Origin: Microbacterium esteraromaticum
GTDB taxonomy: Bacteria > Actinomycetota > Actinomycetes > Actinomycetales > Microbacteriaceae
Length of the DNA: 64,000 bases
Direction: 5' to 3'
Assembly: GCF_028747645.1 (NCBI RefSeq)
Contig: NZ_CP118100.1
Span: 1,116,001-1,180,000, forward strand
The notes beneath the pieces were generated by a model. The model had not been told where the DNA came from. It saw only the letters and a program-made list of their open reading frames with translations, and did not search any database. The position numbers were made by a program, and so were the translations under genes. Each line of letters begins with the position of its first letter. Within the stretch, counting starts at the first letter, position 1. Below are positions 788-16,007 of this stretch, one piece after another.

Positions 788-2016
788 CCGCTCCTGTGCG
801 GGTCGTCATCGCCTCAAGACTCTTTCCCCCCGAGGTCAGCGCCGGCGCCTTCCGGCTGGGAGCGCTCGCCCGCCTGCTCGCGGAGCAGGGTGATGACGTC
901 GTCGTGCTCACCACCACACCGCCGGCCCATGCCCCGGCGACCCCGGATGCACCTGGGGTCGATGTTCGGCGCTGGCCCGTGCTGCGCGACTCCGGCGGCA
1001 ACGTGCGCGGCTACATGCAGTACATGAGCTTCGACATCCCGCTGCTGGCGCGACTGATCGGCACGCGATTCGACGTGGCTGTCGCGGAGTCGCCGCCCAC
1101 CACGGGGCTCGTCGCTGCGATCATCGCGGCCATCAAACGGCGGCCGCTCGTCTATTACGCGGCCGATGTGTGGACCGACGGAGTCATTTCGATGGGGGCC
1201 CCTGGCATCGTCGTGTCCGTCATGCGCTGGATGGAGCGCGCGGTGCTCAGGCGCGCGCGCTCGATCATCTCGGTCTCCGACGAGGTGACTGAGCGGCTCG
1301 TGCTGCTCGGCGCCGCGGCCGACCGCATCGTCACGGTCGGCAACGGCATCGACACCGAGATCTTCAGCCCCGATGTCGAGCCGGCCTCGAACGATGAGTA
1401 CTTCGTCTACACCGGCACCATGTCGGAGTGGCAGCAGCCCGACATATTCATTCGCGCCTTCGCGCAGATCGCGAAGGAGAACCCTGGCGTCCGCCTTCGA
1501 TTCTTCGGTCAGGGCGCAGTAGAAGCGCAGCTGAAGCAGGTCGCAGAGGAACTCGCTCCCGGTCGTGTCGAGTTCGGCGGCGTGGTCAGCCCCGCTGAAT
1601 CGACGTCGTGGATCCGTGGCGCGGCTGCGGCGCTCGTAAGCATCGTCCCCGGGATCGGCTACGACTTCGCCAAGCCGACCAAGACCTATGCGGCAGCCGC
1701 GACCGGGACCCCGGTTCTCTTCGCGGGCCCCGCAGCCGGGGCCGATCTCGTGCGCACCGGCGAGCTCGGCCTCGCGGTCGACTTCACACCTGAGGCCGTC
1801 GCCGACGCGATGCGGCAGTTGCTGTCTGAGGCGCACGACGGCACGACCGCGCTGATGCGGCCCCGCCGCGCAGCGTGGGCCCAGCAGAACGTCTCCCTCC
1901 GTGCTGTCGCCGAGCGGGTCGCGAGGGCGGTCACCCAGGCCGCAGCGGCGCGTGAGCGTAAACTCGAAACCAGTTCCCGCCGATCATCATCCGGCACCGA
2001 AAGGCCAACTCAGTGA
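784..2016 (+). CDS. Glycosyltransferase family 4 (WcaI-like)
   Basis: A 410-residue GT-B fold transferase. The N-terminus has the FPPE...GAFRLG pattern of WcaI-type GT4 enzymes (about residues 13-25). The C-terminal half carries a VGNGID segment and the donor-site region KPTKTYAAAATGTPVLF that replaces the classic EX7E stretch. It should add one sugar to a lipid-linked oligosaccharide in the cytoplasm. ATGA overlap with the upstream DUF2304 gene and GTGA overlap with the downstream acetyltransferase place it in one operon. Donor and acceptor cannot be read from sequence. Confidence 0.85.
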   Translation: MTAPVRVVIASRLFPPEVSAGAFRLGALARLLAEQGDDVVVLTTTPPAHAPATPDAPGVDVRRWPVLRDSGGNVRGYMQYMSFDIPLLARLIGTRFDVAVAESPPTTGLVAAIIAAIKRRPLVYYAADVWTDGVISMGAPGIVVSVMRWMERAVLRRARSIISVSDEVTERLVLLGAAADRIVTVGNGIDTEIFSPDVEPASNDEYFVYTGTMSEWQQPDIFIRAFAQIAKENPGVRLRFFGQGAVEAQLKQVAEELAPGRVEFGGVVSPAESTSWIRGAAAALVSIVPGIGYDFAKPTKTYAAAATGTPVLFAGPAAGADLVRTGELGLAVDFTPEAVADAMRQLLSEAHDGTTALMRPRRAAWAQQNVSLRAVAERVARAVTQAAAARERKLETSSRRSSSGTERPTQ

Positions 2017-2624
2017 AATCTTCGATCAGTGTGCGGGTCGTCGACTCCGCTGATGTCTCGCCCGATGCCTCGATCGGCGATGGCTCGTCGATCTGGCACC
2101 TCGCGCAGGTGCGCGAGGGCGTGCGGATGGGGCAGAACTGCATCGTCGGACGCGGCGCGTACATCGGCACCGGGGTCGAGATGGGCGACAACTGCAAGGT
2201 GCAGAACTACGCACTCGTCTACGAGCCCGCCAAGCTCGCCGACGGCGTGTTCATCGGTCCAGCGGTGGTGCTCACCAACGACACCTATCCGCGGGCGATC
2301 AACGCCGACGGCTCGCTGAAGAGCGCCCACGACTGGGAGCCGGTGGGCGTCACGATCGAGAAGGGCGCGGCGATCGGCGCGCGCTCGACCTGCGTCGCAC
2401 CGGTCACGATCGGCGCATGGGCGACGGTCGCCGCCGGCGCTGTGGTCGTGAAGGATGTGCCTGCGCATGCGCTTGTCGCGGGTGTTCCTGCTCGGCGGAT
2501 CGGCTGGGTGGGGGAGTCGGGTGTTCCGCTCACCCGTGGCGATGACGAATCGACCTGGATCTGCCCGGTGACGGGTGATCGCTTCATTGAGAACAACGAA
2601 ACCCTGACCAAGGAGTCCGCGTGA
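2013..2624 (+). CDS. wbpD: Left-handed beta-helix N-acetyltransferase, WbpD/WlbB-like
   Basis: A 203-residue protein made mostly of hexapeptide repeats (about residues 10-165), the trimeric left-handed beta-helix of sugar N-acetyltransferases. Composition and neighbours match WbpD/WlbB, which acetylates the 3-amino group of UDP-2-acetamido-3-amino-2,3-dideoxy-glucuronate from acetyl-CoA. GTG start overlaps the preceding stop. It is followed immediately by the aminotransferase (WbpE-like) and oxidoreductase (WbpB-like) that make its substrate, which decides between this and other hexapeptide acyltransferases. A short tail with a WICPVTGDRF segment follows the helix domain. Confidence 0.85.
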   Translation: MKSSISVRVVDSADVSPDASIGDGSSIWHLAQVREGVRMGQNCIVGRGAYIGTGVEMGDNCKVQNYALVYEPAKLADGVFIGPAVVLTNDTYPRAINADGSLKSAHDWEPVGVTIEKGAAIGARSTCVAPVTIGAWATVAAGAVVVKDVPAHALVAGVPARRIGWVGESGVPLTRGDDESTWICPVTGDRFIENNETLTKESA

Positions 2625-3718
2625 GCGAGTTCATTCCCCCGGCAAAGCCGATCATCGGTGACGACGAGCGGGCGGCGGTTGACCGTGTGCTGCGCAGTGG
2701 CATGGTGGCGCAGGGCCCTGAGGTGGCGGCGTTCGAGGCGGAGTTCTCGGCGCATTTCGTGTCGGGTCGGCCGTCGGTGGCGGTGAACTCGGGCACGGCT
2801 GGTCTGCACCTGGGCCTGCTGGCCGCGGGTGTCGGGCCGGGGGATGAGGTCATCGTGCCGTCGTTCACCTTCGCGGCGACGGGCAACTCGGTGGCGTTGA
2901 CGGGTGGGACGCCGGTGTTCGTCGACATCGAGCCGGAGACGTTCACTCTGGATCCGGAGGCGGTTGCTGCGGCGATCACCCCGAGGACGAAGGGCATCCT
3001 TCCAGTGCACCTGTATGGTCACCCGGCCCGGATGCGGGAGCTGGAGAAGGTGGCCGCTGAGCGGGGGGTGGCGTTGTATGAGGATGCCGCTCAGGCGCAC
3101 GGGGCGGCGTTGGATGGTCGCCCGGTGGGCTCGTTCGGTGATTTCGCGATGTTCAGCCTGTATCCGACGAAGAACATGACCAGTGGTGAGGGTGGTATGG
3201 TCACCTGCGCCACGGATGAGATCGCGCGTCGGGTGAAGCTGCTGCGCAACCAGGGCATGGAGCGGCAGTACGAGAACGAGATCGTGGGGTTCAACGCCCG
3301 GATGACTGACATCCACGCGGCGATCGGCCGCGTGCAGCTGACCAAGGTTGACGCGTGGACGGCGCAGCGGCAGGCGAATGCGGCGTTCTTGGACGCGAAC
3401 CTGCAGGGTGTCGTGGTGCCCCCGGTCGCCGAGGGTGCGGTGCACGTGTACCACCAGTACACGATCCGCGTGCCGGAGGATCGGGACGGGTTCGTTGCGG
3501 CGTTGAAGGAGGAGCACAACGTCGGCGCGGGTGTGTATTACCCGATCCCGAACCACCGACTGCCGTCGCTGGCCCCGTACGCTCCCGGACTGGAGTTGCC
3601 GGAGACGGAGCGCGCGGCGCGTGAGGTCGCATCGCTGCCGGTGCACCCGTCACTGTCCCAGGCGGATCTGGACCGGATCGTGGCCGCGGTGAACGCGGCG
3701 GCGGGGGCGGGCGCCTGA
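2621..3718 (+). CDS. wbpE: DegT/DnrJ/EryC1/StrS aminotransferase, WbpE/WlbC-like
   Basis: A 365-residue PLP-dependent sugar aminotransferase. Visible features are the N-terminal NSGTAGLHLGL (56-66), the PLP-ring aspartate in EDAAQAHG (D155) and the internal-aldimine lysine in YPTKNMTSGEGG (K184). Within this cluster it should convert the UDP-3-keto-GlcNAcA made by the WbpB-like enzyme into the 3-amino sugar, using glutamate. GTG start in a GTGA overlap with wbpD; stop overlaps the next ATG. The alternative is another 3-keto-sugar aminotransferase, but the wbpD and wbpB neighbours favour WbpE. Confidence 0.88.
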   Translation: MSEFIPPAKPIIGDDERAAVDRVLRSGMVAQGPEVAAFEAEFSAHFVSGRPSVAVNSGTAGLHLGLLAAGVGPGDEVIVPSFTFAATGNSVALTGGTPVFVDIEPETFTLDPEAVAAAITPRTKGILPVHLYGHPARMRELEKVAAERGVALYEDAAQAHGAALDGRPVGSFGDFAMFSLYPTKNMTSGEGGMVTCATDEIARRVKLLRNQGMERQYENEIVGFNARMTDIHAAIGRVQLTKVDAWTAQRQANAAFLDANLQGVVVPPVAEGAVHVYHQYTIRVPEDRDGFVAALKEEHNVGAGVYYPIPNHRLPSLAPYAPGLELPETERAAREVASLPVHPSLSQADLDRIVAAVNAAAGAGA

Positions 3719-4725
3719 TGGCCGAGAACCTGCGTGCCGGTCTGCTCGGCGTCGGCATGATGGGCCGCCACCACGCCCGGGTGCTGCGGGAGCTGGACGG
3801 GGTGGACCTGGTCGCGATCGCCGACCCGGGCGGTGACCCGCACGGGGTGGCCGGTGACCTGCAGGTGCTGCCGGACATCGACGCGCTGATCGCGGAGGGC
3901 CTGGACATCGCGGTGGTGGCCGTGCCGACCCGGTTCCATGAGGATGCGGCGTTGAAGCTGGCTTTGGCCGGCGTGCACACCCTGGTGGAGAAGCCGATTG
4001 CGCACAGCCTGGAGGCCGGGCAGCGGATGGTCGACGCATTCACCGCTGCGGGGCTGGTCGGCGCGGTCGGGCACATCGAACGGTTCAACCCCGCGCTGCA
4101 GGAGCTGCGCCGGCGGATCGAGGCGGGCGAGCTGGGCGCGGTGTATCAGGTGGTCACCCGCCGGCAGGGCCCGTTCCCATCTCGGATCGCCGACGTCGGG
4201 GTCGCGAAAGACCTCGCCTCCCATGACGTGGACCTGACCGCGTGGGTGGTGCAGTCCGACTACGACCGGCTGTTCGCGCAGACCGCGTTCAAGTCCGGCC
4301 GCGAGTACGAGGACATGATCACCATCACCGGGCGGACCAAGTCCGGGGTGATCGTGAACAACATCGTCAACTGGCTGAGCCCGATGAAAGAACGGCTCAC
4401 GGTCGTCACGGGGGAGAAGGGCGCGTTCGTCGCCGACACTTCCACCGGGGACCTGACTTTCTACGCCAACGGCACCATCCCGTTGGAATGGGAATCCGTC
4501 TCCTCGTTCCGCGGCGTCTCCGAAGGCGACGTCACCCGGTACGCGTTCCCCAAGCGCGAGCCGCTGCGCGTCGAGCACGAAGCGTTCCGCGACGCCGTTC
4601 TCGGACAGCAGACCGACCTCGTCACCATGGAACAGGGCCAGCGCACCCTCACCGTCGTCGAAGCCGCACTCGAATCAGCCCGCACGCACACGTCGATCGA
4701 GCTCGCGGACTTCGCAGACCGATGA
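3718..4725 (+). CDS. wbpB: Gfo/Idh/MocA oxidoreductase, WbpB/WlbA-like
   Basis: A 335-residue NAD(P)-dependent oxidoreductase with the Rossmann motif GVGMMG (11-16), the family EKP motif (91-93) and the catalytic-region DLASHDVDL with H169/D170. Expected to oxidise the C3 hydroxyl of UDP-GlcNAcA to the 3-keto sugar for the WbpE-like aminotransferase. It overlaps wbpE by one base (TGATG) and the next ABC transporter start by four, so transcription and translation are coupled. Length is normal for the family. Confidence 0.87.
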   Translation: MAENLRAGLLGVGMMGRHHARVLRELDGVDLVAIADPGGDPHGVAGDLQVLPDIDALIAEGLDIAVVAVPTRFHEDAALKLALAGVHTLVEKPIAHSLEAGQRMVDAFTAAGLVGAVGHIERFNPALQELRRRIEAGELGAVYQVVTRRQGPFPSRIADVGVAKDLASHDVDLTAWVVQSDYDRLFAQTAFKSGREYEDMITITGRTKSGVIVNNIVNWLSPMKERLTVVTGEKGAFVADTSTGDLTFYANGTIPLEWESVSSFRGVSEGDVTRYAFPKREPLRVEHEAFRDAVLGQQTDLVTMEQGQRTLTVVEAALESARTHTSIELADFADR

Positions 4726-6512
4726 AGCAGATCACCGTCCTGCTGCGGCGTCTGCTTCCGTACCTTCCGCCGTCGGCGCGCCGCTTCCTGCTCTGGTACT
4801 CGATCGTCGCAGCCCTGCTGTCGATCGTCGATGTGCTGGCGTTGATGCTGCTCGCACTGACACTGGCTGCGGCCGCGACCGGGAGCGCGATCTCGCTGCC
4901 GATCGTCGGTTCCATGCCCGAGTCGGCGCTGGTCTGGATGATCGCGGGACTGTCGGCGCTCGTGATCGCCAAGTCCGCTGCGAACGTCGGTCTGCAGTGG
5001 ATCGCGACCCGCCGCTTCGCCGAATTCGAGGTGCGGGTCGGCGCGCAGCTGCTCGCCGCCTACCTGCGTGCACCCTGGACCGATCGTCTCGGCCGCAACT
5101 CTGCTCAGGTCGTTCAGATGGCCAATACGGGCGTGGCGAACGTGACCAGCGGCTTCCTGCTGCCCATCACGACCCTGCCGGGCTTGCTGGTCACGTCGAT
5201 CGGCGTGCTGGCAGTGATCGTCGTCGCGCAGCCCCTGACCGCGCTGATCACGGCCGTGTACCTGGTGGGAATCGCTGCGCTCCAGTACTATGTGCTGGGC
5301 GGGCGCACCCGCCAGGCGGCTCGGGTCGCGCGTGATTCGCAGATGGCTGCCGCCGCCCTGATCTCCGGCATGGTGTCGGCTCTGAAGGAGATCACCCTTC
5401 GCGACAAAGCCGCCGAGGTCGAGGTCGTCGTCGAGAAGCAGCGTTCGCTGTCGGCACGCGCCCGGTCGAACTCGAACTTCCTCTCAGCAGTGCCTCGCTT
5501 CATCTTCGACTCGGCCGTCATCGGCGGCTTCCTGCTCACCGGCGGTGTCGCCTACTTCGTCGGCGGTCCGGTCAATGGCCCTCAGGATGCCATCGGCGCA
5601 GTGGCGCTGTTCGGCATCGCGGGCTTCCGGCTGGTGCCTGCACTCACCGGATTCCAGTCGGTGATCACCCGCACCGTCACCACCGCGCCCTACGTCGACA
5701 CGGTCATCGCCGACATCGAATCGGCCGACGACTATCTCAAGGCGCAGGAGCGGCTCGGCCGCGAGCCGCTGCCGTCAGCACCGCAGGTGCTCACTCTCGA
5801 CAACGTCGGGTTCACGTTCCCAGGCTCGTCCACGCCTGCAGTCGAAGCATTGAGCCTCGACATCCGCATGGGGACGACCGTCGGCATCGCCGGACCGTCC
5901 GGCGCCGGCAAGTCGACTCTCGTCGACCTGCTGCTCGGGCTCATCTCGCCGAGCTCAGGACAGATCCTCATCGACGACAAGCCCCTGCAGGACGTGCTCG
6001 CGGCCTGGCGCCAGCATGTCGGCTACGTCCCGCAGGACGTCGCGTTGTTCGACGGCACCATCGCACAGAACATCGCTCTGGTGTGGGACGACAGCTACGA
6101 CCTCGAGCGGGTCGAGCGCGCAGCGCGTCGTGCGCAGCTTTGGGACGTGATCTCGGATCGTGACGGCGGCGTGCACTCGACTGTCGGCGAACGCGGCATG
6201 ACACTCTCCGGAGGGCAGCGACAGCGTCTCGGCATCGCTCGCGCGCTGTACACCGACCCGCTGATCCTCGTCCTCGACGAGGCCACGAGCGCGCTCGACA
6301 GCAAGACCGAGGCGAACGTGACCGAGGCGATCCACGAGCTGCACGGCGAAGTCACGGTCATCGCCGTCGCCCACCGTCTGTCGACGATCCGCGCCTCTGA
6401 TCAGGTGCTCTTCATGCAGGACGGCCGGATCGCGGCGACAGGCACCTTCGATGAGGTCGTCGCCGAACACGAGGACTTCGCGCTCCAGGCGCGGCTCTCA
6501 GGGCTGGCATGA
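4722..6512 (+). CDS. ABC exporter/flippase, fused membrane and ATPase domains (MsbA/PglK type)
   Basis: A 596-residue half-transporter. Residues about 1-330 hold six predicted membrane helices. The ATPase domain has Walker A GPSGAGKST (about 391-399), signature LSGGQ (about 495-499) and Walker B LILVLDEA (about 514-521). Such proteins flip lipid-linked oligosaccharides (PglK/WlaB) or lipids. Its position after the three wbp genes and before transferase genes suggests it flips the lipid-linked glycan of this operon. Start ATG overlaps the wbpB stop (ATGA); the same frame runs open further upstream but that part is antigenically meaningless overlap with wbpB, so 4722 is chosen. Confidence 0.87.
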   Translation: MKQITVLLRRLLPYLPPSARRFLLWYSIVAALLSIVDVLALMLLALTLAAAATGSAISLPIVGSMPESALVWMIAGLSALVIAKSAANVGLQWIATRRFAEFEVRVGAQLLAAYLRAPWTDRLGRNSAQVVQMANTGVANVTSGFLLPITTLPGLLVTSIGVLAVIVVAQPLTALITAVYLVGIAALQYYVLGGRTRQAARVARDSQMAAAALISGMVSALKEITLRDKAAEVEVVVEKQRSLSARARSNSNFLSAVPRFIFDSAVIGGFLLTGGVAYFVGGPVNGPQDAIGAVALFGIAGFRLVPALTGFQSVITRTVTTAPYVDTVIADIESADDYLKAQERLGREPLPSAPQVLTLDNVGFTFPGSSTPAVEALSLDIRMGTTVGIAGPSGAGKSTLVDLLLGLISPSSGQILIDDKPLQDVLAAWRQHVGYVPQDVALFDGTIAQNIALVWDDSYDLERVERAARRAQLWDVISDRDGGVHSTVGERGMTLSGGQRQRLGIARALYTDPLILVLDEATSALDSKTEANVTEAIHELHGEVTVIAVAHRLSTIRASDQVLFMQDGRIAATGTFDEVVAEHEDFALQARLSGLA

Positions 6513-7720
6513 GTATGTCCGAAATGTCGTCGATGGTGGCTGCACGCTGGCGCATGGCGAAGCGCCTGGTGCGCTCCCGCATGCCGGAGGCGATCACCTC
6601 TCGAATCGGACCGGCGACGGCGCGCTACCGCCCGCAGGACGTGCCCGCACCCGTGGCCGCTCCGGCCACGGACGTTCGACTGCTTGTCGGACCGCGCAAC
6701 TTCGCGGGACAGGGAGATCGCTGGGCGCGCGCAGCCGAGCGGCTGCCGGGCGTCGGCGCGGTCTCGATGATCGCGGGTGACAACGGCGGGCTCGACTTCC
6801 CCGTGGACTACGGGGTGCCGGATGCTGTCTACACGAACTCGCGGCGTTGGGGCATCCGGCAGCGCGGCGCCGTCGGCGCCGGGTTCACGCACGTGATGAT
6901 CGAGGCGGTGTCGTCGATGTTCGGCGCGGCCAGCGACAAGGTCGTCGCACGCGAAGTCGAATGGCTGCGTGCCCAGGGCGTGCAGGTCGCGATGCTGTGC
7001 CATGGCACTGACATCCGGCTGCCCGACCGTCATGCGCAGCTCGATGAATGGTCGCCCTTCCGAGACGCCCCGGCCGACTGGGTGAACCGGCTCCAGACCC
7101 GCGCCTCGTTCAATCAGCAGGTCCTGGACCGCGTCGCTGCACCGGTCTTCGTGTCGACGCCGGAGATGCTGCTGGATCGCCCCGGTGCGCAGTGGCTGCC
7201 GATCGTGGTGGACATCGAGCGGTGGGCGACGTCGACAGAGATCCTCACCAGTGATCGACCGGTCGTACTGCACGCCCCGACGAACCCCCTCGTCAAGGGC
7301 ACCGCTCTGATCGAGCCGATCGTGCAGCGGCTGCACGAGGCTCGACAGATCGATTACCGTCGCGTGGTCCGCGTGCCCTCCGGAGAGATGCCCGCGCTGT
7401 ACGCCGGCGCGGACGTGGTGCTCGAGCAGTTCGCGCTGGGGATGTACTCGGTCACTTCGGTCGAGGCGATGGCCGCCGGGCGCATCGCCATCGCGCACGT
7501 GCACGACCAGGTGCGCGACCACGTCCGTGAGACGACCGGACTGGAGCTGCCCGTGGTCGAAGCGACGCCGGATACGCTGCATGACGTGCTCGACGACATC
7601 CGCACTCGCCCCGAGCATTACCGCGAGGTGGCGCGCCGCGGACCCGACTTCGTGCGGGCTGTCCACGACGGAGCGCTTTCGGCGCGAGTGCTCGCGCCTT
7701 TTCTGGGGGTGACGGCATGA
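6509..7720 (+). CDS. Glycosyltransferase, GT-B fold (family 1/4-like)
   Basis: A 403-residue protein with a basic N-terminus (about 1-50) and a GT-B type core. The C-terminal half has the pattern HAPTNPLVKG...YAGADVVLEQFALGMYSVTSVEAMAAGR, which corresponds to the donor-binding EX7E-like region of GT4 enzymes. It is coupled by ATGA overlaps to the flippase upstream and the next transferase downstream. Close ATG codons at 6509 and 6515 make the exact start uncertain by two codons. Sugar specificity unknown. Confidence 0.8.
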   Translation: MSMSEMSSMVAARWRMAKRLVRSRMPEAITSRIGPATARYRPQDVPAPVAAPATDVRLLVGPRNFAGQGDRWARAAERLPGVGAVSMIAGDNGGLDFPVDYGVPDAVYTNSRRWGIRQRGAVGAGFTHVMIEAVSSMFGAASDKVVAREVEWLRAQGVQVAMLCHGTDIRLPDRHAQLDEWSPFRDAPADWVNRLQTRASFNQQVLDRVAAPVFVSTPEMLLDRPGAQWLPIVVDIERWATSTEILTSDRPVVLHAPTNPLVKGTALIEPIVQRLHEARQIDYRRVVRVPSGEMPALYAGADVVLEQFALGMYSVTSVEAMAAGRIAIAHVHDQVRDHVRETTGLELPVVEATPDTLHDVLDDIRTRPEHYREVARRGPDFVRAVHDGALSARVLAPFLGVTA

Positions 7721-9048
7721 GCAGGCACCTGCTTCTCACCGCGTGGGCGTTCCCGCCAGCTCGGACGAGCGGCGTGTACCGCGCCGCCGGAATCGCCGAC
7801 GCATTCGTTCGTGCGGGCTGGCACGTGACGGTTCTCACCGGACCCGCATCGCTGTTCCGGGCGAACGAGGTGGCCGACGAGACGCTGCTCGAGACCGTCG
7901 ATCCGCGCATCGAGATCGTCGAGGTGCCGCTGGAGCATCACGAGCTCTCCACAGACATCACCACATGGTCGCGCACCCGCGCCCGCCAGCCTGAGCTGTG
8001 GACGCGCCGCAGGCTTCAGCGGGATCGTCATGAGTTCCCCGAGGCCTGGTATGGATCGTGGGCGCCTGCCTTGCGCGAGGCAGCGGATGCTGTGCACCAG
8101 AGCCGACCGGTCGATCTCGCACTGGGCACAGCCGCACCGTACGTCGACTTCGTCCCGGGGGAGCACCTGCGTGCCCAGCACGGCGTACCTTACATCCTCG
8201 ACTACCGGGATGCGTGGACGTTCCTGACCTTCACCGGCACGCCGCCGGCTGGGCTCACCGATGCGGTCCGTGATCGAGAGCGCGCCCTGATGAGCGAGGC
8301 GTTCCAGGTGTGGTTCGTGAACGACCCGATCCGCGGCTGGCACGCCGGGCAGTATCCCGACTCCGCCGCGAAGATGCGCACGGTGCGCAACGGATTCGAT
8401 CTGCCCGCTCAGGCCACCGACGCGGCGGCGTTCGGCGTTCCGCTTCGCGATGCCGCAGACGGTCCACTGACCTTCGGATACATCGGAACCATCAACTTCG
8501 GAGCCTTTCCGCTCGACGAGGTCGTCGAGGCTTGGCGGATTGCTCGGATGCAGCTCCCCGAGGGGTCTCGTCTCGTGCTGCGCGGTCACCTGGGCCGCAC
8601 GGGCGAGGGCAGCCCCCAGCTCCTCGCGGCGTTGGCCGAGGCTGAACCTCTTGGCATCGTCTACGAGGGGCCGGTGAGTCGGAGCCGGCTCACCGAGGTC
8701 TATCGACAGTTCGACGCACTGCTGCTGGCGCTGCCCAGCGGCCCTGGCGTGACCAGCGGCAAGGTGTACGAGTACGCGGCCACGGGTCTGCCGATCGTCT
8801 CGGTGCACACGCCGGAGACCCCTGTGGCAGAGGTGCTGGGCGACACGGATCACTGGCATGCACCCCGCTCGCTCGAGCCTGAAGCGATCGCTGAATCGCT
8901 GATCGATGCCGCGCGCCAGGTGCAGTTGAGCACCGTGGGCGTCCGTCAGCGCGCGATCGCCGCCGGCCTCCGCTGGGAGCGGCTGGGCATCCTGGCGACG
9001 GCCGTCGCCGATATCGAGACCGAGTTCGGCATGGAGGCGCGCGCATGA
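7717..9048 (+). CDS. Glycosyltransferase family 4, copy A of a mirrored pair
   Basis: A 443-residue GT4-like enzyme. The N-terminus has WAFPPARTSGVYR (about 10-22), the middle DYRDAWTF and WFVNDPI, the C-terminal donor region TSGKVYEYAATGLPIVSVH. The - strand protein at 9882-11210 shares the same landmarks in the same order (GFPPSRSGGAYR, DYRDTW, WFVNEPI, TSGKVFEYMATGLPIVSVH), so the two are paralogues. ATGA overlaps join it to the preceding transferase and the following small gene. It probably acts on a similar acceptor to its partner. Confidence 0.85.
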   Translation: MSRHLLLTAWAFPPARTSGVYRAAGIADAFVRAGWHVTVLTGPASLFRANEVADETLLETVDPRIEIVEVPLEHHELSTDITTWSRTRARQPELWTRRRLQRDRHEFPEAWYGSWAPALREAADAVHQSRPVDLALGTAAPYVDFVPGEHLRAQHGVPYILDYRDAWTFLTFTGTPPAGLTDAVRDRERALMSEAFQVWFVNDPIRGWHAGQYPDSAAKMRTVRNGFDLPAQATDAAAFGVPLRDAADGPLTFGYIGTINFGAFPLDEVVEAWRIARMQLPEGSRLVLRGHLGRTGEGSPQLLAALAEAEPLGIVYEGPVSRSRLTEVYRQFDALLLALPSGPGVTSGKVYEYAATGLPIVSVHTPETPVAEVLGDTDHWHAPRSLEPEAIAESLIDAARQVQLSTVGVRQRAIAAGLRWERLGILATAVADIETEFGMEARA

Positions 9049-9476
9049 GAATCGTCGTCTTCGCACCGTCTGCCGGCGACATCGCCGGCGGCCTCAAGTC
9101 TCTCGCCGCCCATGCGGAGGTGACCGTCGTCTCGACTATGCCGGCGCAGTGGCCCGATGCCGATTCGCTGGCGGTAGGCACTTCGCCGCTTCGCCTGCGA
9201 TTGTCGGAGTTCGCGCGCCGCACGCCCCCGGGCCGCGCACTCAGGCGGCTGACACCGCTCGATCCCGGAGCCATGTTCGCGCATCGCGCGCGTCGGTCTG
9301 CGCAGGCGCAGGCCGCGATCTCCGCGGCGGACCTGCTGGTATCGGTCGAGCGCGACGCCCACTACGCCGTGTGGCGGGAGGCCAGGCGCCGCAGACGGCA
9401 AGGGGCCCCCGTGCCGGCGGTCGTTGGATTTCCGGCGGCGCGAGTGACGGCGGGCCGGTTCAGCCGCGATTCGTGA
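9045..9476 (+). CDS. Uncharacterised small protein, copy A of a mirrored pair
   Basis: A 143-residue protein of unknown function that starts in an ATGA overlap with the upstream transferase. It resembles the 140-residue product on the opposite strand at 9460-9882: both begin MR(I/V)V, carry an AEV segment near residue 25, a (T/S)PLD segment near 75 and then an AD(L/V)(L/V)V..(E/D)RDA....VW stretch near 100-115. The first 30 residues look like the first beta-alpha unit of a GT-B Rossmann domain without the rest of the enzyme. The last 17 bases overlap the last 17 of the convergent gene. No signal peptide or membrane helix is seen. Confidence 0.7.
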   Translation: MRIVVFAPSAGDIAGGLKSLAAHAEVTVVSTMPAQWPDADSLAVGTSPLRLRLSEFARRTPPGRALRRLTPLDPGAMFAHRARRSAQAQAAISAADLLVSVERDAHYAVWREARRRRRQGAPVPAVVGFPAARVTAGRFSRDS

Positions 9477-9882
9477 GGGCGAACAACGCGGCGGAGCCTC
9501 CGTAGACGGCGTCCCAGGAATCGCCGAGATCTCGCATCCTCGAGAGCTTCCACACCGTCAGGATCGCGTCCCGATCGAGAGCGACGACCACGTCCGCATC
9601 GCGCACCAGCGCGTGTAGCACACGGTCCCGCTTCGCAGCTCGCCACAGTCGGCGCGACCGGTCGAGCGGAGAGATGCGGATCGCATTCCGCCCGACGGCG
9701 GACCGCCAGGCCAGGCGTTCGATGCGCTGTGAAAGCCCGCGGGGGGCAGCGGGCGTCAGCACGTGCGTCACGGAGTGCGCGCCCTTCGACGCGGGTCCAA
9801 CGCGGACGACCTCGGCTCGTGCGGCCAGATCGGCGAGAGCGGGCGTCTCGTGATCGCTGGACATGATCGCCACCACGCGCAT
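9460..9882 (-). CDS. Uncharacterised small protein, copy B of a mirrored pair
   Basis: A 140-residue protein starting at ATG 9880-9882, which overlaps the stop of the upstream transferase (ATGA), exactly as in copy A. The frame is open 12 codons further upstream, but the coupled ATG and the match to copy A from residue 1 decide the start. It shares the MRVV start, SPLD segment and DADVVVALDRDAILTVW stretch with copy A. It has a soluble, Arg-rich composition and no recognised domain. Its job is presumably linked to the adjacent GT4 enzyme because the pairing is conserved in both copies. Confidence 0.7.
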   Translation of the reverse strand: MRVVAIMSSDHETPALADLAARAEVVRVGPASKGAHSVTHVLTPAAPRGLSQRIERLAWRSAVGRNAIRISPLDRSRRLWRAAKRDRVLHALVRDADVVVALDRDAILTVWKLSRMRDLGDSWDAVYGGSAALFALTNRG

Positions 9883-11210
9883 CAGGCACCCCCGACTTCG
9901 ACGAGGCGCTCGCGCCACTGCCGAGCGATCGGCTCCAGGACGCGCGCTCGTTCATAGCGATTCGCCCATTCCCGCGCGGCTCGCCGGTCGGCGACGGTCT
10001 GCTGTGCCGCGATATCGGCGGCGCGGATGAGCGCGTCAGCGACGTCCTCCGACTCGAGCGAAGCGGCCGGAGCCCACGCGGGATAGCCGCGCAGGGTGTC
10101 GCTGACTGCGTTCACCGGGTCGTGGACCGACACGATCGGAAGCCCGGTGGCCATGTACTCGAAGACCTTTCCGCTGGTCATGAAGCGGCTGGTGCCAAGT
10201 GGCAGGATCAGCGCGTCGAGACCGGCGTAGGTGTCTGCGATCTCGGCCTTGGACACCGGGCCGTTGTAACGCACCGAACCGTCGACGGCAGCGGCGATCG
10301 TACCCAGGACGTTCCCCTCATCGTCGCCCTGATGACCGAGATAGCCGTAGAGGTCTATCCGGGCATCCGACAGCGCGCCCCTGGCTCTGGCCGACAGCCA
10401 CCCGTCGACGAGCTGCGGGATCGGCGTCTGCGACGTCATCGTGCCGATGTTCCCGAAGACCAGCTCGGCGTCGCGATCGGCGCGAGGGGCGGCGACGTCG
10501 CCCACGAACTCCGGGTCGAACCCGTTCGAGACGACCCGGATGCGCTCTGCCGCCTGCGGGTACAGGTCGCGATGCCACTGCGCGATGGGCTCGTTCACGA
10601 ACCACGCCTCATCTGCCGACTCGATCAGCCGCTTCTCCCACTGCGCCCCGGGATGGCGGTCGGTGAGCGTGCGCCGCCCTGAGTACATGTCCAGCTGCCA
10701 GGTGTCGCGATAATCCATGACGAACGGGACGTTCGCAGTGTTCTTCAGATGAAAGCCGGCGGTGTGCACGACGTTCGGGTTCCCCGAGCCGATCGTGAGC
10801 GTGACCGGGTGATCGCGATGGATGCGTGTCGCGGCCTGCTCCAGATTCGTGCGCCACAGCCCATAGCGCGGTTCGGGGAACACCCGGGAGGTGCGCCAGC
10901 CGCGCCAGCCGTTCCACAGTTCGGGCGCATGTGCGCGAAAGCTGCCCCAGGTGCGCAGATCCAGGACGGTCTCATCGTGCGGGAACGGGATGCGCTCGAT
11001 GCGAATCCTCGGATCCACACGCTCTTCCATCGACGGGTCGACTCCGGTGCTGCGCAGGAAGACCTCGCGCGGCACGGTCAGAACCGTGACATCCCAGCCC
11101 TCGCGAGCGAACGCGTTCGCTGTCGCCAGCAGGCGGTACGCGCCGCCGCTGCGTGACGGCGGGAAGCCCCAGGCGACATAGAGTAGGTGAGGCGGTGATA
11201 CGTGCGACAA
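9882..11210 (-). CDS. Glycosyltransferase family 4, copy B of a mirrored pair
   Basis: A 442-residue GT4-like enzyme, paralogous to the + strand gene at 7717-9048: the GFPPSRSGGAYR, VTVLTVPREVFLRS, DYRDTW, WFVNEPIAQWH and TSGKVFEYMATGLPIVSVHDP landmarks line up along the length. The frame starts at a TTG (11208-11210) and no ATG or GTG gives a complete N-terminal beta strand, so the start is less sure. It is divergent from the next gene (73 bases between starts) and coupled by ATGA to the small gene downstream. Donor and acceptor unknown. Confidence 0.83.
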   Translation of the reverse strand: MSHVSPPHLLYVAWGFPPSRSGGAYRLLATANAFAREGWDVTVLTVPREVFLRSTGVDPSMEERVDPRIRIERIPFPHDETVLDLRTWGSFRAHAPELWNGWRGWRTSRVFPEPRYGLWRTNLEQAATRIHRDHPVTLTIGSGNPNVVHTAGFHLKNTANVPFVMDYRDTWQLDMYSGRRTLTDRHPGAQWEKRLIESADEAWFVNEPIAQWHRDLYPQAAERIRVVSNGFDPEFVGDVAAPRADRDAELVFGNIGTMTSQTPIPQLVDGWLSARARGALSDARIDLYGYLGHQGDDEGNVLGTIAAAVDGSVRYNGPVSKAEIADTYAGLDALILPLGTSRFMTSGKVFEYMATGLPIVSVHDPVNAVSDTLRGYPAWAPAASLESEDVADALIRAADIAAQQTVADRRAAREWANRYERARVLEPIARQWRERLVEVGGA

Positions 11211-11283
11211 AGGCGAACCTGCTGAGAAGTGGCGATCAGAGGGCGAGAACGCCTAACCATAACACCGGTCCTTGGAGGGGCAG

Positions 11284-12438
11284 ATGCGCATAGCGGTGAC
11301 GAAAGCATCCATCCTCATACCGCCGACGTACTTCGCGGTCTCGCACGCGCGGCTTCTGGGAGCAGCGCACGACGTGAGAATATTCGCCGGTGCGGCCAGG
11401 GTCACCGACCCGCATGCCCTCGACGGAATCGAACTGGACGAGACTCTCCCGCAGGTGCTGCCGTTCACGGATCGCTGGCCCATCCGCAGGCGGGAGCAGG
11501 TCGGGGCTCTGCTGTGGGGCGCCACGTCCCGGCGCATCAGACGATGGGCGCCGGACGTCATCCATCAGCATTTCGCGTATGGGGCGCGGGCAGCGGTATC
11601 GGCCGCGAAGCGAGCGCGACGGCCGCTGGCCGTCACTGTGCACGGCGGAGACGCATTCGTCCCGCTCACCCCGCTGCGCGAGCGGGGCCTGCGGGCGCGT
11701 CCGGCGCTGTTCGCGATGCAGCGCGAGGTCAGGGCGGTGTACCGGAGGGCCGATCTGATCCTCGCGGTGAGTGAGTACATCGCGGGCATCGCGGTGCAGG
11801 GCGGAGCGGATCCCGCACGCGTTCGCGTGCACTATCAGGGGATCGACACGGATGTCTTCACACCCCCCGAAGAGCCGATGACCGCGAGCGTGCGCCGGGT
11901 GCTCTTCGTCGGTCGGCTGGTCGACGCCAAGGGCGTGTTCGATCTGCTCGAGGCGTCGGCTGCTCTCGTGGAAGAGCAGCCACACGAACTGGTCTTCGTC
12001 GGCGATGGACCCGCACGCACACGCCTGGAATCCGCGGCGCAGGCGTCGCCGCATATTCGCGTGGCGGGTTCCCTGCCGAGCTCGGAGGTGCGGGACCTGC
12101 TGCGCACTGCGCACGCGCTCGTGCTTCCCACCCGGCTCAACGGCCGCGCGCGGGAAGCCGCCGGGCTCGTCCTGCTCGAAGCCCAGGCATGCGGAGTCCC
12201 GGTGATCGCATACGACAGTGGCGGCACTGCCGAGATGATGAACGTCGGGGAGACCGGTTGGCTCGCCCCCGAAGGCGATGTGGAGTCTCTGCAGGCGCGG
12301 CTCTCCGAGTCCCTTTCGCAGACCGCGTCGAGTCGCGCGGATATGGGGCGTCGCGCCCGGGCCTTCGTCGTCGAACATCGAAGCCTGACGGCGAGCGCTC
12401 GTCAGCTTTCCGCCATCTACGAGGAGATCCGCCGGTGA
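11284..12438 (+). CDS. Glycosyltransferase family 4 (WcaL-like)
   Basis: A 384-residue retaining GT-B enzyme. It shows HQHFAYGA and VHGGDAF in the acceptor domain, VGRLVDAKGVFDLLEA at the start of the donor domain and REAAGLVLLEAQACGVPVIA with the EX7E-type motif near the C-terminus. ATG 11284 is preceded by a strong Shine-Dalgarno GGAGGGG (11274-11280), preferred over a TTG at 11272. It is the first gene of a + operon running to 18253 and its stop overlaps the next GTG. WcaL-type enzymes are often galactosyl- or glucosyltransferases in exopolysaccharide synthesis; specificity here is not known. Confidence 0.87.
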   Translation: MRIAVTKASILIPPTYFAVSHARLLGAAHDVRIFAGAARVTDPHALDGIELDETLPQVLPFTDRWPIRRREQVGALLWGATSRRIRRWAPDVIHQHFAYGARAAVSAAKRARRPLAVTVHGGDAFVPLTPLRERGLRARPALFAMQREVRAVYRRADLILAVSEYIAGIAVQGGADPARVRVHYQGIDTDVFTPPEEPMTASVRRVLFVGRLVDAKGVFDLLEASAALVEEQPHELVFVGDGPARTRLESAAQASPHIRVAGSLPSSEVRDLLRTAHALVLPTRLNGRAREAAGLVLLEAQACGVPVIAYDSGGTAEMMNVGETGWLAPEGDVESLQARLSESLSQTASSRADMGRRARAFVVEHRSLTASARQLSAIYEEIRR

Positions 12439-13574
12439 CCCGCATCCTCTGCATCTCCCTGTCGCCCATCCGCCGCGATGCGCGAGTGCTGCGCCAGATC
12501 AGTGTGCTTCGCGAGTTGGGTGACGTCGTCACCGTCGGCTACGACGAGCAGCCCGATGGCGTCATCGAGCACATCCGCGTGCCGGATGATCGACTGTCAC
12601 TGCCCCAGACTCCGGGGGGAGTGCTGAATCTCGGTCTGCGCAGATTCTCTGCGGTCGAGTTGGCGGCGCCGGGAGTGTCGTATGCGCTCGAGCAGCTGCG
12701 CGGACGGGAATTCGATCTGGTCGTCGCCAACGACGCGCGCGTGCTGGGTCTTGCCTTCGAGGTCGCCGGCGACGCGCCCGTCTGGGCGGATATGCACGAG
12801 TGGGCTCCTGAGGAGCGCACGCATGTGCTGTCCTGGCGGCTTCTCGTCGCCCCGTTCATGGTTCATCTCTGCCGTAAGTATCTTCCGCGCGCCGCCGCGG
12901 TGACCACGGTCGGTGGGGAGATCGCTGAGCTCTACCAGCGCGACTTCGGGGTCACGCCTCAAGTGATGCGCAACGCGGCGCCGTTCGCGGACCTGAACCC
13001 GAGTGAGATGGTGGCCGGTCGGATCCGGCTCGTGCACAGCGGGGGAGCGGTCCACGGCCGCAACCTCGAGGCGATGATCGACGCGGTGAAGGAACTCGAC
13101 GACCGCTTCTCGCTCGATCTGTACCTCGTGCCGGCTGCGGACGGGGGCAAGTATCTCCGCTCGCTGAAGGAGCGTGCCGGCGGAGACCCCAGGGTCGTGT
13201 TTCACGAGCCGGTGGCACCGTCGATGCTGCCCGCCACTCTCAACGCGTATGACGTGGGCGTGTTCTGGATCCCGCCCGTGCACACGAACGCGCGTCTGAC
13301 GCTGCCGAACAAGCTGTTCGACTACGTGCAGGGACGTCTGGCGCTGGCGATCGGCCCGACCATCGAGATGGAGCGCGTCGTGCGAGAGCACGAACTCGGC
13401 GTGATCAGCGCCGGGTTCGACGTGCAGAGCTGCGTCGAATCGCTCCGAGCCCTGACCCCCGACGACATCATGCGTTTCAAGCGGGCATCGGACGCGAGCG
13501 CTGAAGAACTGAGCTTCGAGCACGAGGGTGCGGCCGCGTTGGCGATGCTCCGCACCGTGCTCTCCACTTCGTAG
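12435..13574 (+). CDS. Glycosyltransferase (GT-B fold)
   Basis: A 379-residue protein whose GTG start sits in a GTGA overlap with the preceding transferase. It has SPIRRDARVLRQI near the N-terminus, a mid-protein ADMHEWAPEERTH segment and a donor-domain pattern LVHSGGAVHGRNLEAMIDAV ... FDYVQGRLALAIGP. This is the layout of GT4-like enzymes in capsule and exopolysaccharide loci. The frame runs open 82 codons further upstream but that overlaps the preceding gene. Substrates unknown. Confidence 0.8.
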   Translation: MTRILCISLSPIRRDARVLRQISVLRELGDVVTVGYDEQPDGVIEHIRVPDDRLSLPQTPGGVLNLGLRRFSAVELAAPGVSYALEQLRGREFDLVVANDARVLGLAFEVAGDAPVWADMHEWAPEERTHVLSWRLLVAPFMVHLCRKYLPRAAAVTTVGGEIAELYQRDFGVTPQVMRNAAPFADLNPSEMVAGRIRLVHSGGAVHGRNLEAMIDAVKELDDRFSLDLYLVPAADGGKYLRSLKERAGGDPRVVFHEPVAPSMLPATLNAYDVGVFWIPPVHTNARLTLPNKLFDYVQGRLALAIGPTIEMERVVREHELGVISAGFDVQSCVESLRALTPDDIMRFKRASDASAEELSFEHEGAAALAMLRTVLSTS

Positions 13575-13586
13575 ACTGGAGCCACT

Positions 13587-14654
13587 GTGAAGATCGTCAG
13601 TGTGGTGGGCGCGCGCCCGCAGTTCGTGAAGCTTGCTCCCATTCACAAGGCGGCACTCGCCGCCGGTGTGGAGCATGTCATCGTGCATACCGGGCAGCAT
13701 TATGATCCGATGCTCTCGGACGTCTTCTTCGAGGATCTGGGCATCGGCGCTCCTGATGTGCATCTTGGGGTCGGCAGTGGTTCGCATGGGGTGCAGACCG
13801 GTGCGATGCTGGCGGCTCTGGATGCCGTCTTCGATGAGCACCGTCCCGACTGGGTGCTGGTGTACGGCGACACAAACTCGACGGTTGCTGCCGCGTTGAG
13901 CGCGGTGAAGATGCACATCCCCGTCGCGCATCTCGAGGCGGGGCTGCGCAGCTTCAACCGCCGGATGCCGGAAGAGCACAACCGGGTGATGACCGATCAT
14001 GCGGCGGATCTGCTGCTGGCGCCGACGCAGGTGGCGGTGGAGCACCTGGCATCCGAGGGTCTTGAGAAGCGCACCGTGCAGGTAGGTGACGTGATGACCG
14101 ACGTGCTGTATGAAGTGCGCGATCAGGTCGCCGGCAGCCCGTCGGCGCTGCTGTCGGAGCTGGGGCTGCAGCCGGGCGGGTTCTACGTGGCGACGATCCA
14201 TCGTGCCGAGAACACCGACGACCCGGCCCGGCTGGCGGAGGTGGCGGGCAGTCTTGCCGGCCTGGACAAGCCGGTGGTCCTGCTCGCTCATCCTCGGGTG
14301 GTCGCCAAGGCGGCGGCCCATGGCATCTCTCTCACGCAGGGCTCGCTGATCGCTCACGCCCCGCTCGCCTATGCCGATCTGATCGCCGCGGCGCTTTCCA
14401 GCGCCGGCGTCGTCACGGACTCTGGCGGCCTGCAGAAGGAGGCCTTCCTGCTCGGGGTGCCGTGCACGACGGTGCGCACCGAGACGGAGTGGGTCGAGAC
14501 GGTGGAGTTGGGCTGGAATGTGCTGGCGAACACGGCGGCCGAGATCGCTGCGGGGGTCACCCGCCCCATCCCCGCGCCCGCGGATGCCGCGCCGTACGGC
14601 GACGGCCACGCCGCCGATCGCGTCGTCCAGGCGCTGTTCGCCTGGCAGCGCTGA
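13587..14654 (+). CDS. wbpI: UDP-sugar 2-epimerase, WbpI-like (UDP-GlcNAc3NAcA 2-epimerase)
   Basis: A 355-residue non-hydrolysing UDP-GlcNAc-type 2-epimerase with GARPQF (8-13), VYGDTNST around D95, HLEAGLRSFNRRMPEE with E117 and E129/E130, and ATIHRAEN. The RSFN(x)RMPEE(x)NR stretch and QVGDVMTD segment are closer to WbpI than to WecB. WbpI epimerises C2 of UDP-2,3-diacetamido-2,3-dideoxy-glucuronate to UDP-ManNAc3NAcA, the step after WbpD. GTG start with GGAG (13578-13581) five bases upstream; a TAGACT hexamer overlaps the preceding stop. Alternative: an ordinary WecB acting on UDP-GlcNAc. Confidence 0.85.
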   Translation: MKIVSVVGARPQFVKLAPIHKAALAAGVEHVIVHTGQHYDPMLSDVFFEDLGIGAPDVHLGVGSGSHGVQTGAMLAALDAVFDEHRPDWVLVYGDTNSTVAAALSAVKMHIPVAHLEAGLRSFNRRMPEEHNRVMTDHAADLLLAPTQVAVEHLASEGLEKRTVQVGDVMTDVLYEVRDQVAGSPSALLSELGLQPGGFYVATIHRAENTDDPARLAEVAGSLAGLDKPVVLLAHPRVVAKAAAHGISLTQGSLIAHAPLAYADLIAAALSSAGVVTDSGGLQKEAFLLGVPCTTVRTETEWVETVELGWNVLANTAAEIAAGVTRPIPAPADAAPYGDGHAADRVVQALFAWQR

Positions 14655-14711: not shown

Positions 14712-16007
14712 ATGCGTATCGCTGTTGTGGCCCTTGGGAAGATCGGCCTGCCTCTTGCTGTCCAGTTCGCTTCGTCTGGTCATGAGGTGATCGGGGTGGA
14801 CGTCAATCAGAAGGCGGTGGACTCGATCAACGCCGCCAGGGAGCCGTTCCCGGGCGAGGCGGAGCTGCAGGAGCGTCTGGAGGAGTTGATCCCGGCGGGG
14901 CGGCTGCGGGCGACGACAAACTACGCGGAGGCGATTCCGGGTGCTGATGCCGTGGTGCTTGTGGCACCGGTGTTCGTGAACGATGAGACCTGGGAGCCGG
15001 ATTTCAAGTACATGGACGCCGCGACGAAGTCGCTGGCGGAGCACCTCACTCCGGGCACGCTGGTCTCGTACGAGACCACCCTTCCGGTGGGCACGACCCG
15101 TACGCGCTGGAGGCCGATGCTCGAAGAGGGGTCGGGCCTGACCGAGGGCGTGGACTTCCATGTGGTCTACTCGCCCGAGCGAGTGCTGACCGGCCGGGTC
15201 TTCGAAGACCTGCGCAAGTACCCCAAGCTCATCGGCGCGCTCTCTGATGAGGGCACCCGACGGGCGCGGGAGTTCTACGAGGCGGTGCTGCAGTTCGACG
15301 AGCGCCCCGACCTCGCGCAGCCGAACGGCGTGTGGGACCTCGGCTCGACCGAGGCATCCGAGATGGCGAAGCTTGCCGAGACGACCTATCGCGACGTGAA
15401 CATCGGGCTGGCGAACCAGTTCGGCCTGTTTGCGGCATCGCACGGCATCGACGTGTACAAGGTGATCGAGGCATGCAACTCGCAGCCCTACAGTCACATC
15501 CACCGTCCCGGCATTGCCGTCGGCGGACACTGCATCCCGGTGTACCCGCGGCTGTACCTGTCGACGGACCCCGACGCTGACATCGTGCGCGTCGCCCGTC
15601 AGCTCAACGCGTCGATGCCGGAGCGTCTGGTCGCCCAGGCCGAGGGGATCCTGGGGGATCTCACCGGCCGGCGGGCAGTTGTGCTGGGAGCGGCGTACCG
15701 CGGGGGAGTGAAGGAGACCGCGTTCTCGGGCGTCTTCCCGACCGTCGACGCGCTGCGCTCGCGCGGTGCGGAGGTGCTCGTGCACGACCCGCTGTACACC
15801 GACGACGAGCTGCGCGGTCTCGGCTTCGAGCCGTACGCGATCGGCGGGGCCGCCGACCTGGCTATCCTGCAGACCGACCACGCCGACTACAAGACCCTGA
15901 CACCGGCCGACATCCCCGGGGTGAAGCTGCTCGTCGACGGGCGCAACGCCAGCGACGCAGGCCTGTGGGCCGGCACCCCCCGCATCGTCGTCGGCACCGC
16001 CGGCTGA
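14712..16007 (+). CDS. wbpA: Nucleotide-sugar 6-dehydrogenase, WbpA/WecC family
   Basis: A 431-residue NAD-dependent UDP-sugar dehydrogenase. The N-terminal Rossmann motif is ALGKIGLPLA (7-16); the catalytic cysteine is C274 in GGHCIPVYP, where most relatives have VDP. It oxidises C6 of UDP-HexNAc to the uronic acid in two steps. With wbpB, wbpE, wbpD and wbpI in the same locus, UDP-GlcNAc to UDP-GlcNAcA is the most economical role; a WecC role on UDP-ManNAc is the alternative. A TAGAAT hexamer (14699-14704) lies 7 bases before the ATG, so transcription may start at the initiation codon. Confidence 0.86.
   Translation: MRIAVVALGKIGLPLAVQFASSGHEVIGVDVNQKAVDSINAAREPFPGEAELQERLEELIPAGRLRATTNYAEAIPGADAVVLVAPVFVNDETWEPDFKYMDAATKSLAEHLTPGTLVSYETTLPVGTTRTRWRPMLEEGSGLTEGVDFHVVYSPERVLTGRVFEDLRKYPKLIGALSDEGTRRAREFYEAVLQFDERPDLAQPNGVWDLGSTEASEMAKLAETTYRDVNIGLANQFGLFAASHGIDVYKVIEACNSQPYSHIHRPGIAVGGHCIPVYPRLYLSTDPDADIVRVARQLNASMPERLVAQAEGILGDLTGRRAVVLGAAYRGGVKETAFSGVFPTVDALRSRGAEVLVHDPLYTDDELRGLGFEPYAIGGAADLAILQTDHADYKTLTPADIPGVKLLVDGRNASDAGLWAGTPRIVVGTAG

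What the first reader, a model, noticed from the sequence alone, without database searches (positions are those of the whole stretch)
7717..11210. Mirrored, tail-to-tail duplicated cassette: GT4 plus small unknown protein
On + a GT4 (7717-9048) is ATGA-coupled to a 143-residue protein (9045-9476). On - a paralogous GT4 (11210-9882) is ATGA-coupled to a paralogous 140-residue protein (9882-9460). The two cassettes converge with a 17-base overlap. An inverted duplication that diverged while keeping gene order and coupling suggests that each GT4 needs its small partner, an undescribed two-part enzyme.
Basis: partly seen in the sequence, partly recalled or inferred. Interest (0 to 1): 0.75.

Follow-up and report, generated by a model that had tools for sequence, protein, structure and literature searches.

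The report
Sugar transferases with a conserved partner
Two neighbouring sugar-adding enzymes in a bacterium's cell-surface sugar gene cluster each come with the same kind of small unnamed protein, and that small protein turns up beside, or fused to, related enzymes in many other actinobacteria, which suggests an overlooked helper subunit.

Summary
Two GT4 genes, each overlapping a small gene, converge tail to tail; the GT4s are 40% identical, the small proteins 34%. The small protein matches no Pfam or NCBIfam family, yet 57 of 68 profile matches in sampled genomes of its class lie beside a GT4 of this subfamily. In the genus, the 13 of 149 genomes with the GT4 are the same 13 with the small gene. 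In some genomes both are one protein. An AlphaFold model (pLDDT 89) is a Rossmann-like domain; the family has a basic helical insert, one position acidic in 41 of 41 rows and an invariant tryptophan. Best reading: a non-catalytic helper subunit of GT4s building a teichuronic-acid-like wall polymer. Binding and activity are untested.

The parts
7717..9048 (+). GT4 glycosyltransferase 'GTp' (443 aa)
   Evidence: PF13692 E 1e-6, above cut-off; 40% identical to 9882-11210
9045..9476 (+). small partner protein 'SMp' (143 aa)
   Evidence: no Pfam/NCBIfam family; homologues; ATGA overlap with GTp
9460..9882 (-). small partner protein 'SMm' (140 aa)
   Evidence: 34% identical to SMp; AlphaFold model pLDDT 89; TGATG overlap with GTm
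9882..11210 (-). GT4 glycosyltransferase 'GTm' (442 aa, TTG start)
   Evidence: PF13439 E 1.2e-9 and PF13692 E 6e-7, both above cut-off
9460..9476 (.). 17-base overlap of the two convergent small genes
   Evidence: coordinates
9327..9374 (+). SMp conserved motif ADLLVSVERDAHYAVW (residues 95-110; acidic residue 102 and W110)
   Evidence: E/D at 102 in 41 of 41, W110 in 41 of 41 rows of A2
9550..9597 (-). SMm conserved motif ADVVVALDRDAILTVW (residues 96-111)
   Evidence: same columns; strand 98-101 then helix 104-115 in the model
2013..2624 (+). context: hexapeptide acetyltransferase, WbpD-like
   Evidence: PF00132; name WbpD by analogy
2621..3718 (+). context: DegT/DnrJ aminotransferase, WbpE-like
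   Evidence: PF01041 E 4e-121
3718..4725 (+). context: GFO/IDH/MocA oxidoreductase, WbpB-like
   Evidence: PF01408
4713..6512 (+). context: ABC transporter, ATPase domain with a weak membrane-domain match (start chosen by eye)
   Evidence: PF00005 above cut-off, PF00664 just below it
6509..7720 (+). context: conserved protein just upstream of GTp, no Pfam family at E<=1e-5
   Evidence: 0 families; relatives in 21 of 37 loci scanned
11272..12438 (+). context: GT4 of another kind
   Evidence: PF00534, PF13692, PF13439
12435..13574 (+). context: weak GT4-like protein (start chosen by eye)
   Evidence: PF13439 E 5.5e-6, below cut-off
13587..14654 (+). context: UDP-N-acetylglucosamine 2-epimerase
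   Evidence: PF02350 E 1e-92
14712..16007 (+). context: UDP-sugar dehydrogenase
   Evidence: PF03721/PF00984/PF03720

Best explanation
The small protein is a dedicated, probably non-catalytic accessory subunit of a GT4 subfamily that builds a ManNAc3NAcA-type, teichuronic-acid-like cell-wall glycan in Actinomycetes. Shown: conserved adjacency, co-presence, overlapping genes and natural fusions with the GT4. Predicted with high model confidence: a single Rossmann-like alpha/beta domain; its helical insert is strongly basic. Inferred: it binds its GT4; the basic insert docks on the anionic membrane or the lipid-pyrophosphate acceptor, or on the mildly acidic GT4; and the conserved acidic-x-D-A-(x4)-W motif at the end of a strand holds the acceptor or the partner. 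It would thus work like EryCII with EryCIII or Alg14 with Alg13: stabilise, place or activate the catalytic chain. The window simply carries two long-separated copies of this cassette, GTp-SMp and GTm-SMm, facing each other.
For: Genus: 13 of 149 genomes carry the GT4 at E<=1e-50, and the same 13 carry the small protein (a 14th small match, G132, has 3 stops and E 5.8e-4 and is taken as chance); Fisher p 6e-19. Class: 25 genomes with both, 7 GT4 only, 2 small only, of 296 at the call thresholds; p 8e-28. The genomes are related to one another, so both p-values overstate. Adjacency, same strand, matched parts under 700 bases apart, 57 of 68 (with 25-27, 39, 66, 84). Overlap of 1 or 4 bases at 34 of 35 junctions placed, in both gene orders. 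Fusions in one open frame: L082 (636 aa) and L093 (629 aa), L118, and two 636-aa database proteins standing for 6 and 1 sequences. Model pLDDT 89, pTM 0.84. Net charge median +7 for 41 small rows, with a median of +6 in the helical insert, against -3 for 31 GT4s; position 102 acidic 41 of 41, W110 41 of 41. Neighbouring genes encode the aminotransferase, oxidoreductase, acetyltransferase, 2-epimerase and dehydrogenase expected for UDP-ManNAc3NAcA, the set assigned in the Streptomyces griseus utr locus (PMC13274773 section 9).
Against: Not every GT4 has one: 11 of 37 GT4 copies in the class sample lack a recognised small neighbour, and four genus genomes have two GT4s and one small gene. The class count from the GT4 side is biased towards pairs, since the GT4 profile A4 was built from GT4s found beside small genes. 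The domain also occurs beside or inside other GT genes (L173, L085, L175), so it is not exclusive to this GT4. Overlapping junctions are common in this operon anyway (coordinates), so overlap alone is weak evidence. The fusion model gave no usable placement of the small domain (pLDDT below 50 over most of it, pTM 0.65). Two of the fusions (P0030, P0032) match no Pfam family at E<=0.001, their GT4 part being recognised by similarity to GTp/GTm only. No catalytic or binding data exist.
Confidence: 0.6

Rival explanations
1. The small protein is an independent enzyme or binding protein acting on the same glycan intermediate as the GT4 (for example a tailoring step); genes and fusions bring two successive activities together rather than one two-part enzyme.
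For: Rossmann-like model with a conserved acidic motif at a strand end, a usual ligand site. Also found beside or inside other GT types. One small gene for two GT4s in L062-L065.
Against: About 140 aa with no credible match to any family in Pfam or NCBIfam. Across 41 rows only W110 is invariant, with position 102 always E or D, little for a catalytic site.
Confidence: 0.2
2. The small protein is a relic or split-off copy of a GT-B N-terminal domain that supplies a missing half-site to the GT4.
Confidence: 0.1
3. A passenger gene: the small gene is carried along in an exchangeable cell-wall glycan locus without working with the GT4.
For: The small gene is patchy (22 of 295 genus genomes, 20 without two chance matches), and the operon is tightly packed with overlapping genes.
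Against: The pair stays together when gene order, strand and neighbours change (GT4-small, small-GT4, inverted unit, mirrored), in other families of the class, and as fusions.
Confidence: 0.07
4. The mirrored arrangement arose by an inverted duplication in this lineage that was kept because each copy needs its partner.
For: Both cassettes share gene order GT4-small and lie tail to tail in the window, G258 and G012.
Against: GTp groups with the GTp of L060-L065 (starred 100) and GTm elsewhere; the AU test rejects one clade of the six GT4s, p 1.4e-44 (quick tree, test run after seeing it). The small tree alone is not decisive, p 0.074.
Confidence: 0.03

Closest known systems
EryCIII-EryCII (glycosyltransferase with P450-like activating partner; abstract and outline of PMC3391682 seen)
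   Same: A GT with a dedicated non-GT partner, described there as stabilising the GT and activating it allosterically.
   Different: There the partner is a P450 homologue and the substrate a macrolide; here the partner is a ~140-aa Rossmann-like domain and the GTs are GT4s in a wall-glycan locus. No binding shown here.
Alg13-Alg14 bipartite GlcNAc transferase (two passages of PMC9527342 seen)
   Same: A catalytic chain that is inactive unless bound to a second chain, membrane protein Alg14.
   Different: There the two chains together make one GT (that they are the two halves of a GT-B fold is recalled). Here the GT4 is full length. Membrane helices were not looked for in the small protein.
GtfA-GtfB O-glycosyltransferase of serine-rich repeat adhesins (recalled; only a search listing seen)
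   Same: A catalytic GT with a partner that aids acceptor recognition (recalled).
   Different: Partner there is a large GT-like protein and the acceptor a protein (recalled); no sequence relation tested.
Streptomyces griseus utr locus for ManNAc3NAcA teichuronic acid (PMC13274773: section 9 whole, other passages)
   Same: Same kind of precursor pathway genes as those flanking the cassettes.
   Different: The parts read name no small GT partner; UtrC and UtrF are compared there with TarS and TarM. Whether any Utr protein is related to our GT4 or small protein was not tested.

Membership tests
CAZy GT4 / GT-B glycosyltransferase (the two large proteins) | Match to GT4 N- and C-domain profiles | tested here: met
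   GTm: PF13439 and PF13692 above cut-off; GTp: PF13692 above cut-off, PF13439 below it
CAZy GT4 / GT-B glycosyltransferase (the two large proteins) | Retaining sugar transfer activity | not testable with these tools
   no assay; no solved relative by sequence at E<=0.001
GT-B N-terminal domain (small protein) | Sequence-profile relation to GT4 N-domain | tested here: not met
   hhalign probability 0.7% against the partner GT4s; no Pfam match for P0002/P0004 at E<=1
GT-B N-terminal domain (small protein) | GT-B Rossmann fold | tested here: inconclusive
GT with dedicated helper subunit (EryCIII/EryCII or Alg13/Alg14 kind, by mode of action) | Helper encoded with its GT and conserved with it | tested here: met
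   57 of 68 matches adjacent; co-presence 13 of 13 in the genus sample
GT with dedicated helper subunit (EryCIII/EryCII or Alg13/Alg14 kind, by mode of action) | Every GT of the subfamily has a helper | tested here: not met
   11 of 37 GT4 copies without recognised neighbour; two GT4s with one small gene in L062-L065
GT with dedicated helper subunit (EryCIII/EryCII or Alg13/Alg14 kind, by mode of action) | Physical complex | tested here: inconclusive
   natural fusions suggest it; AlphaFold on a fusion did not place the domain
GT with dedicated helper subunit (EryCIII/EryCII or Alg13/Alg14 kind, by mode of action) | GT activity depends on helper | not testable with these tools
   needs bench assay
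EryCII-like P450 homologue / Alg14 family (small protein) | Sequence match to those families | tested here: not met
   no Pfam or NCBIfam match for P0002/P0004 at E<=1 nor a credible one for the 41 rows
Teichuronic-acid-like ManNAc3NAcA locus | Aminotransferase, oxidoreductase, acetyltransferase, 2-epimerase and UDP-sugar dehydrogenase genes together | tested here: met
   Pfam matches at 2013-4725 and 13587-16007

The most novel reading that the evidence does not exclude
The small protein founds an unnamed family of helper subunits for cell-wall glycosyltransferases spread through the class Actinomycetes: an obligate part of the active enzyme that brings an acidic residue and a basic membrane- or pyrophosphate-docking surface, and is recombined as a module (separate gene before or after the GT4, one gene for two GT4s, fused behind a GT4, or, as in L175, at the front of another GT).
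Probability: 0.3. Interest if true: 0.7.

Novelty: new variant of a known kind. Interest (0 to 1): 0.52.

Why it matters
Wall glycans of actinobacteria such as teichuronic acids are receptors for antibacterial particles (umbrella toxins; PMC13274773, passages). If their GT4 enzymes work only, or only properly, with a small partner, then expressing the GT4 alone would miss activity. The small family would also be a handle for assigning which enzymes make which polymer, and an unannotated gene in many genomes would get a testable role.

Tried and rejected
Rejected: (1) recent inverted duplication. (2) Small protein as a piece of the partner GT4: hhalign found nothing. (3) Chance profile matches G076, G228, G628, G839 and a third match in G000 (701926): weak and partial, and no GT4 of the subfamily seen beside the first four (the G000 one was judged from its row alone). 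These five are kept in the denominator of 68. G132 (3 stops; nothing found in its contig) and G1017 (2 stops, not examined) are outside that count.

Led nowhere: viral structure library (no match at E<=0.001). Solved-structure sequence searches for the small profile (two matches at E 0.43 and 1.2), for GTm and for the GT4 profile, none at E<=0.001. AlphaFold on the natural fusion P0032 with 11 rows: GT4 part confident, small part mostly pLDDT below 50, so the interface is unknown. A mixed alignment meant for that job put the small rows on the GT4 N-domain and was not used.

Paper searches: searches returned none. Searches (4 of 4 listed; 15 of 27; 10 of 731; 4 of 4; 10 of 295; 10 of 663; 8 of 9) showed nothing on this gene pair, judged by titles and abstract starts of the papers listed. 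Of papers opened, PMC13274773 was read in part (section 9 and passages), PMC3391682 and PMC10937113 by outline and abstract (for the latter), PMC9527342 by two passages. This thin search is the whole basis for saying that I found no description in print.

Motif scan: the first pattern failed its positive control and is void. A corrected pattern found 39 of 41 family rows and four of four controls, and among 14 GT4 copies tested one downstream motif, in L179.
Full report
Observation. GTp (7717-9048, +) runs into SMp (9045-9476, +) by ATGA. GTm (11210-9882, -, TTG start) runs into SMm (9882-9460, -) by TGATG, a one-base overlap rather than ATGA. The two small genes overlap by 17 bases at their 3' ends. 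GTp and GTm are 40% identical over 424 columns, and SMp and SMm 34% over 137. In the whole 3.2 Mb genome SMp finds only itself and SMm at E<=0.001.

What the proteins are. Both large proteins match GT4 profiles. Neither small protein matches Pfam or NCBIfam at E<=1. Of 41 family rows scanned later, Pfam at E<=1 gave only scattered weak matches, one of them PF13439 at E 0.036, and NCBIfam at E<=0.01 gave none. In a database of 5.8 billion proteins SMp has 12 matches and SMm 14, self included; those with a source name are 'hypothetical protein', and the organism-named ones are Microbacterium.

Co-occurrence from the small side. With SMp as query, 14 of 149 genomes of the genus match. With GTm at E<=1e-50, 13 of 149 match. 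These 13 are the same genomes; the 14th (G132) is a weak match with three stops. A profile of 26 small proteins (A1) hits 22 of 295 genus genomes and 15 of 297 order genomes. A 41-row profile (A2) hits 27 of 296 class genomes and 4 of 236 phylum genomes; three of those four are G000, G616 and G685, and the fourth, G1017, is a weak match with two stops that I did not examine. Counting each place once, searches give 68 matches: 25, then 14 new, then 29 new (28 in other genomes and a third one in G000). In 57 a GT4 of this subfamily lies on the same strand with the matched parts under 700 bases apart: 23 of 25, 12 of 14, and 22 of 29 (L115 and L116 only). Of the 11 others, five look like chance (G076, G228, G628, G839, the third G000 match). 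Six carry the motif but sit elsewhere. Three from family f32 (L172-L174) are separate genes; in L173, the one I compared, the small gene follows a GT4 of another kind, which matches PF13439 and is 28% identical to the window's 12435-13574 protein. Two (L085, L088) are separate genes; in L085 the neighbour on the other strand resembles the same window protein, 29% over 198 columns. One (L175) is the front part of a 738-residue open frame whose later part matches the GT profile PF13692 (residues 551-699).

Co-occurrence from the GT4 side. 32 of 296 class genomes have the GT4 at E<=1e-80; 25 of these are among the 27 with a small match. This count leans towards pairs, because the GT4 profile was built from GT4s found beside small genes. 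Of the 37 GT4 places listed, 26 have a recognised small gene beside them, two of these (G696 and a second copy in G672) seen only on a second look. Eleven do not: G651, G757, G685, G635 (second copy), G728, G672 (first copy), G737 (first copy, not examined), G818, G593 (contig ends soon after), G607 and G656. In G607 and G656 the overlapping next gene encodes a protein of over 800 residues, with GT domains later on, that begins with a similar-looking stretch; the family profile does not score it and the motif pattern finds it only in G607, so I treat it as a lead.

Arrangement. The pair keeps together while much else changes: mirrored in the window, G258 and G012; one small gene between two GT4s in L062-L064; small gene upstream of the GT4 in L065, L070-L073 and L075-L078; GT4 then small as a unit inverted against its neighbours in L066-L069 and L074. 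Of 35 junctions that I placed (26 from the genus, the window's two included, and nine from other loci; class loci and L082, L084, L091, L092 were left out), 30 overlap by 4 bases, 4 by 1, and one is 11 bases apart (starts were chosen as those nearest the expected residue). This is weaker evidence than it looks, since several other junctions of the window operon overlap by 1 or 4 bases too. Three genomes hold GT4 and small domain in one open frame: L082 (636 aa), L093 (629 aa) and L118. A search with the small part of the L082 fusion found two 636-residue database proteins, standing for 6 and 1 sequences, so this fusion is not a single sequencing error. P0030 and P0032 themselves match no Pfam family at E<=0.001; their GT4 part is recognised by similarity to this subfamily (P0032 is 36% identical to GTp and 35% to GTm in the alignment).

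History. A tree of 48 of the 72 GT4 matches places the window's GTp in a group of seven with the GTp of L060-L065 (starred 100) and GTm in another group of three (starred 100). Forcing the six GT4s of the three mirrored loci into one clade is rejected (p-AU 1.4e-44; a quick tree, tested after seeing it). A tree of 27 small proteins groups like with like, but its own AU test is not decisive (p 0.074). The mirror therefore most likely came from two old cassettes placed tail to tail, not from a recent inverted duplication.

Setting. The flanking genes encode an aminotransferase, oxidoreductase, acetyltransferase, 2-epimerase and UDP-sugar dehydrogenase, the set that the Streptomyces griseus utr study assigns to UDP-ManNAc3NAcA for teichuronic acid (PMC13274773 section 9). 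The wall-polymer assignment here is by that analogy.

Mechanism. I commit to a non-catalytic helper subunit (0.6): it binds its GT4 and places or stabilises it at the membrane-bound, pyrophosphate-carrying acceptor. Adjacency, co-presence and fusion are shown; binding, membrane docking and dependence are inferred. Known systems that work this way are EryCIII-EryCII (PMC3391682, abstract) and Alg13-Alg14 (PMC9527342, passage); the small protein matches neither family by sequence. Novelty: a new variant of a known kind, resting on the database and paper searches named.

Noticed in passing
window 6509-7720: Protein upstream of GTp has no Pfam family at E<=1e-5 although relatives sit in 21 of 37 loci scanned.
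   Followed up: no
GT4 pair 7717-9048 and 9882-11210: This GT4 subfamily has no sequence relative among solved structures at E<=0.001, even by profile.
   Followed up: partly
L179 and L181 (G607, G656): After the GT4, an overlapping gene of over 800 residues with further GT domains.
   Followed up: partly
L172-L174: In family f32 a copy of the small gene sits away from this GT4; in L173 it follows a different kind of GT4.
   Followed up: partly
L175:2115-4328 (-): The small domain is the front of a 738-residue frame with a later GT domain; L098 and L099 of the same genus show the domain in long frames too, not examined further.
   Followed up: partly
window 784-16007: The cassette is patchy: the small gene is found in 22 of 295 genomes of the genus, 20 without two chance matches, as expected for exchange of surface-sugar loci.
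   Followed up: no
L116 (G626): A GT4-small open frame appears broken into two pieces in this draft genome, against one frame in L118.
   Followed up: no
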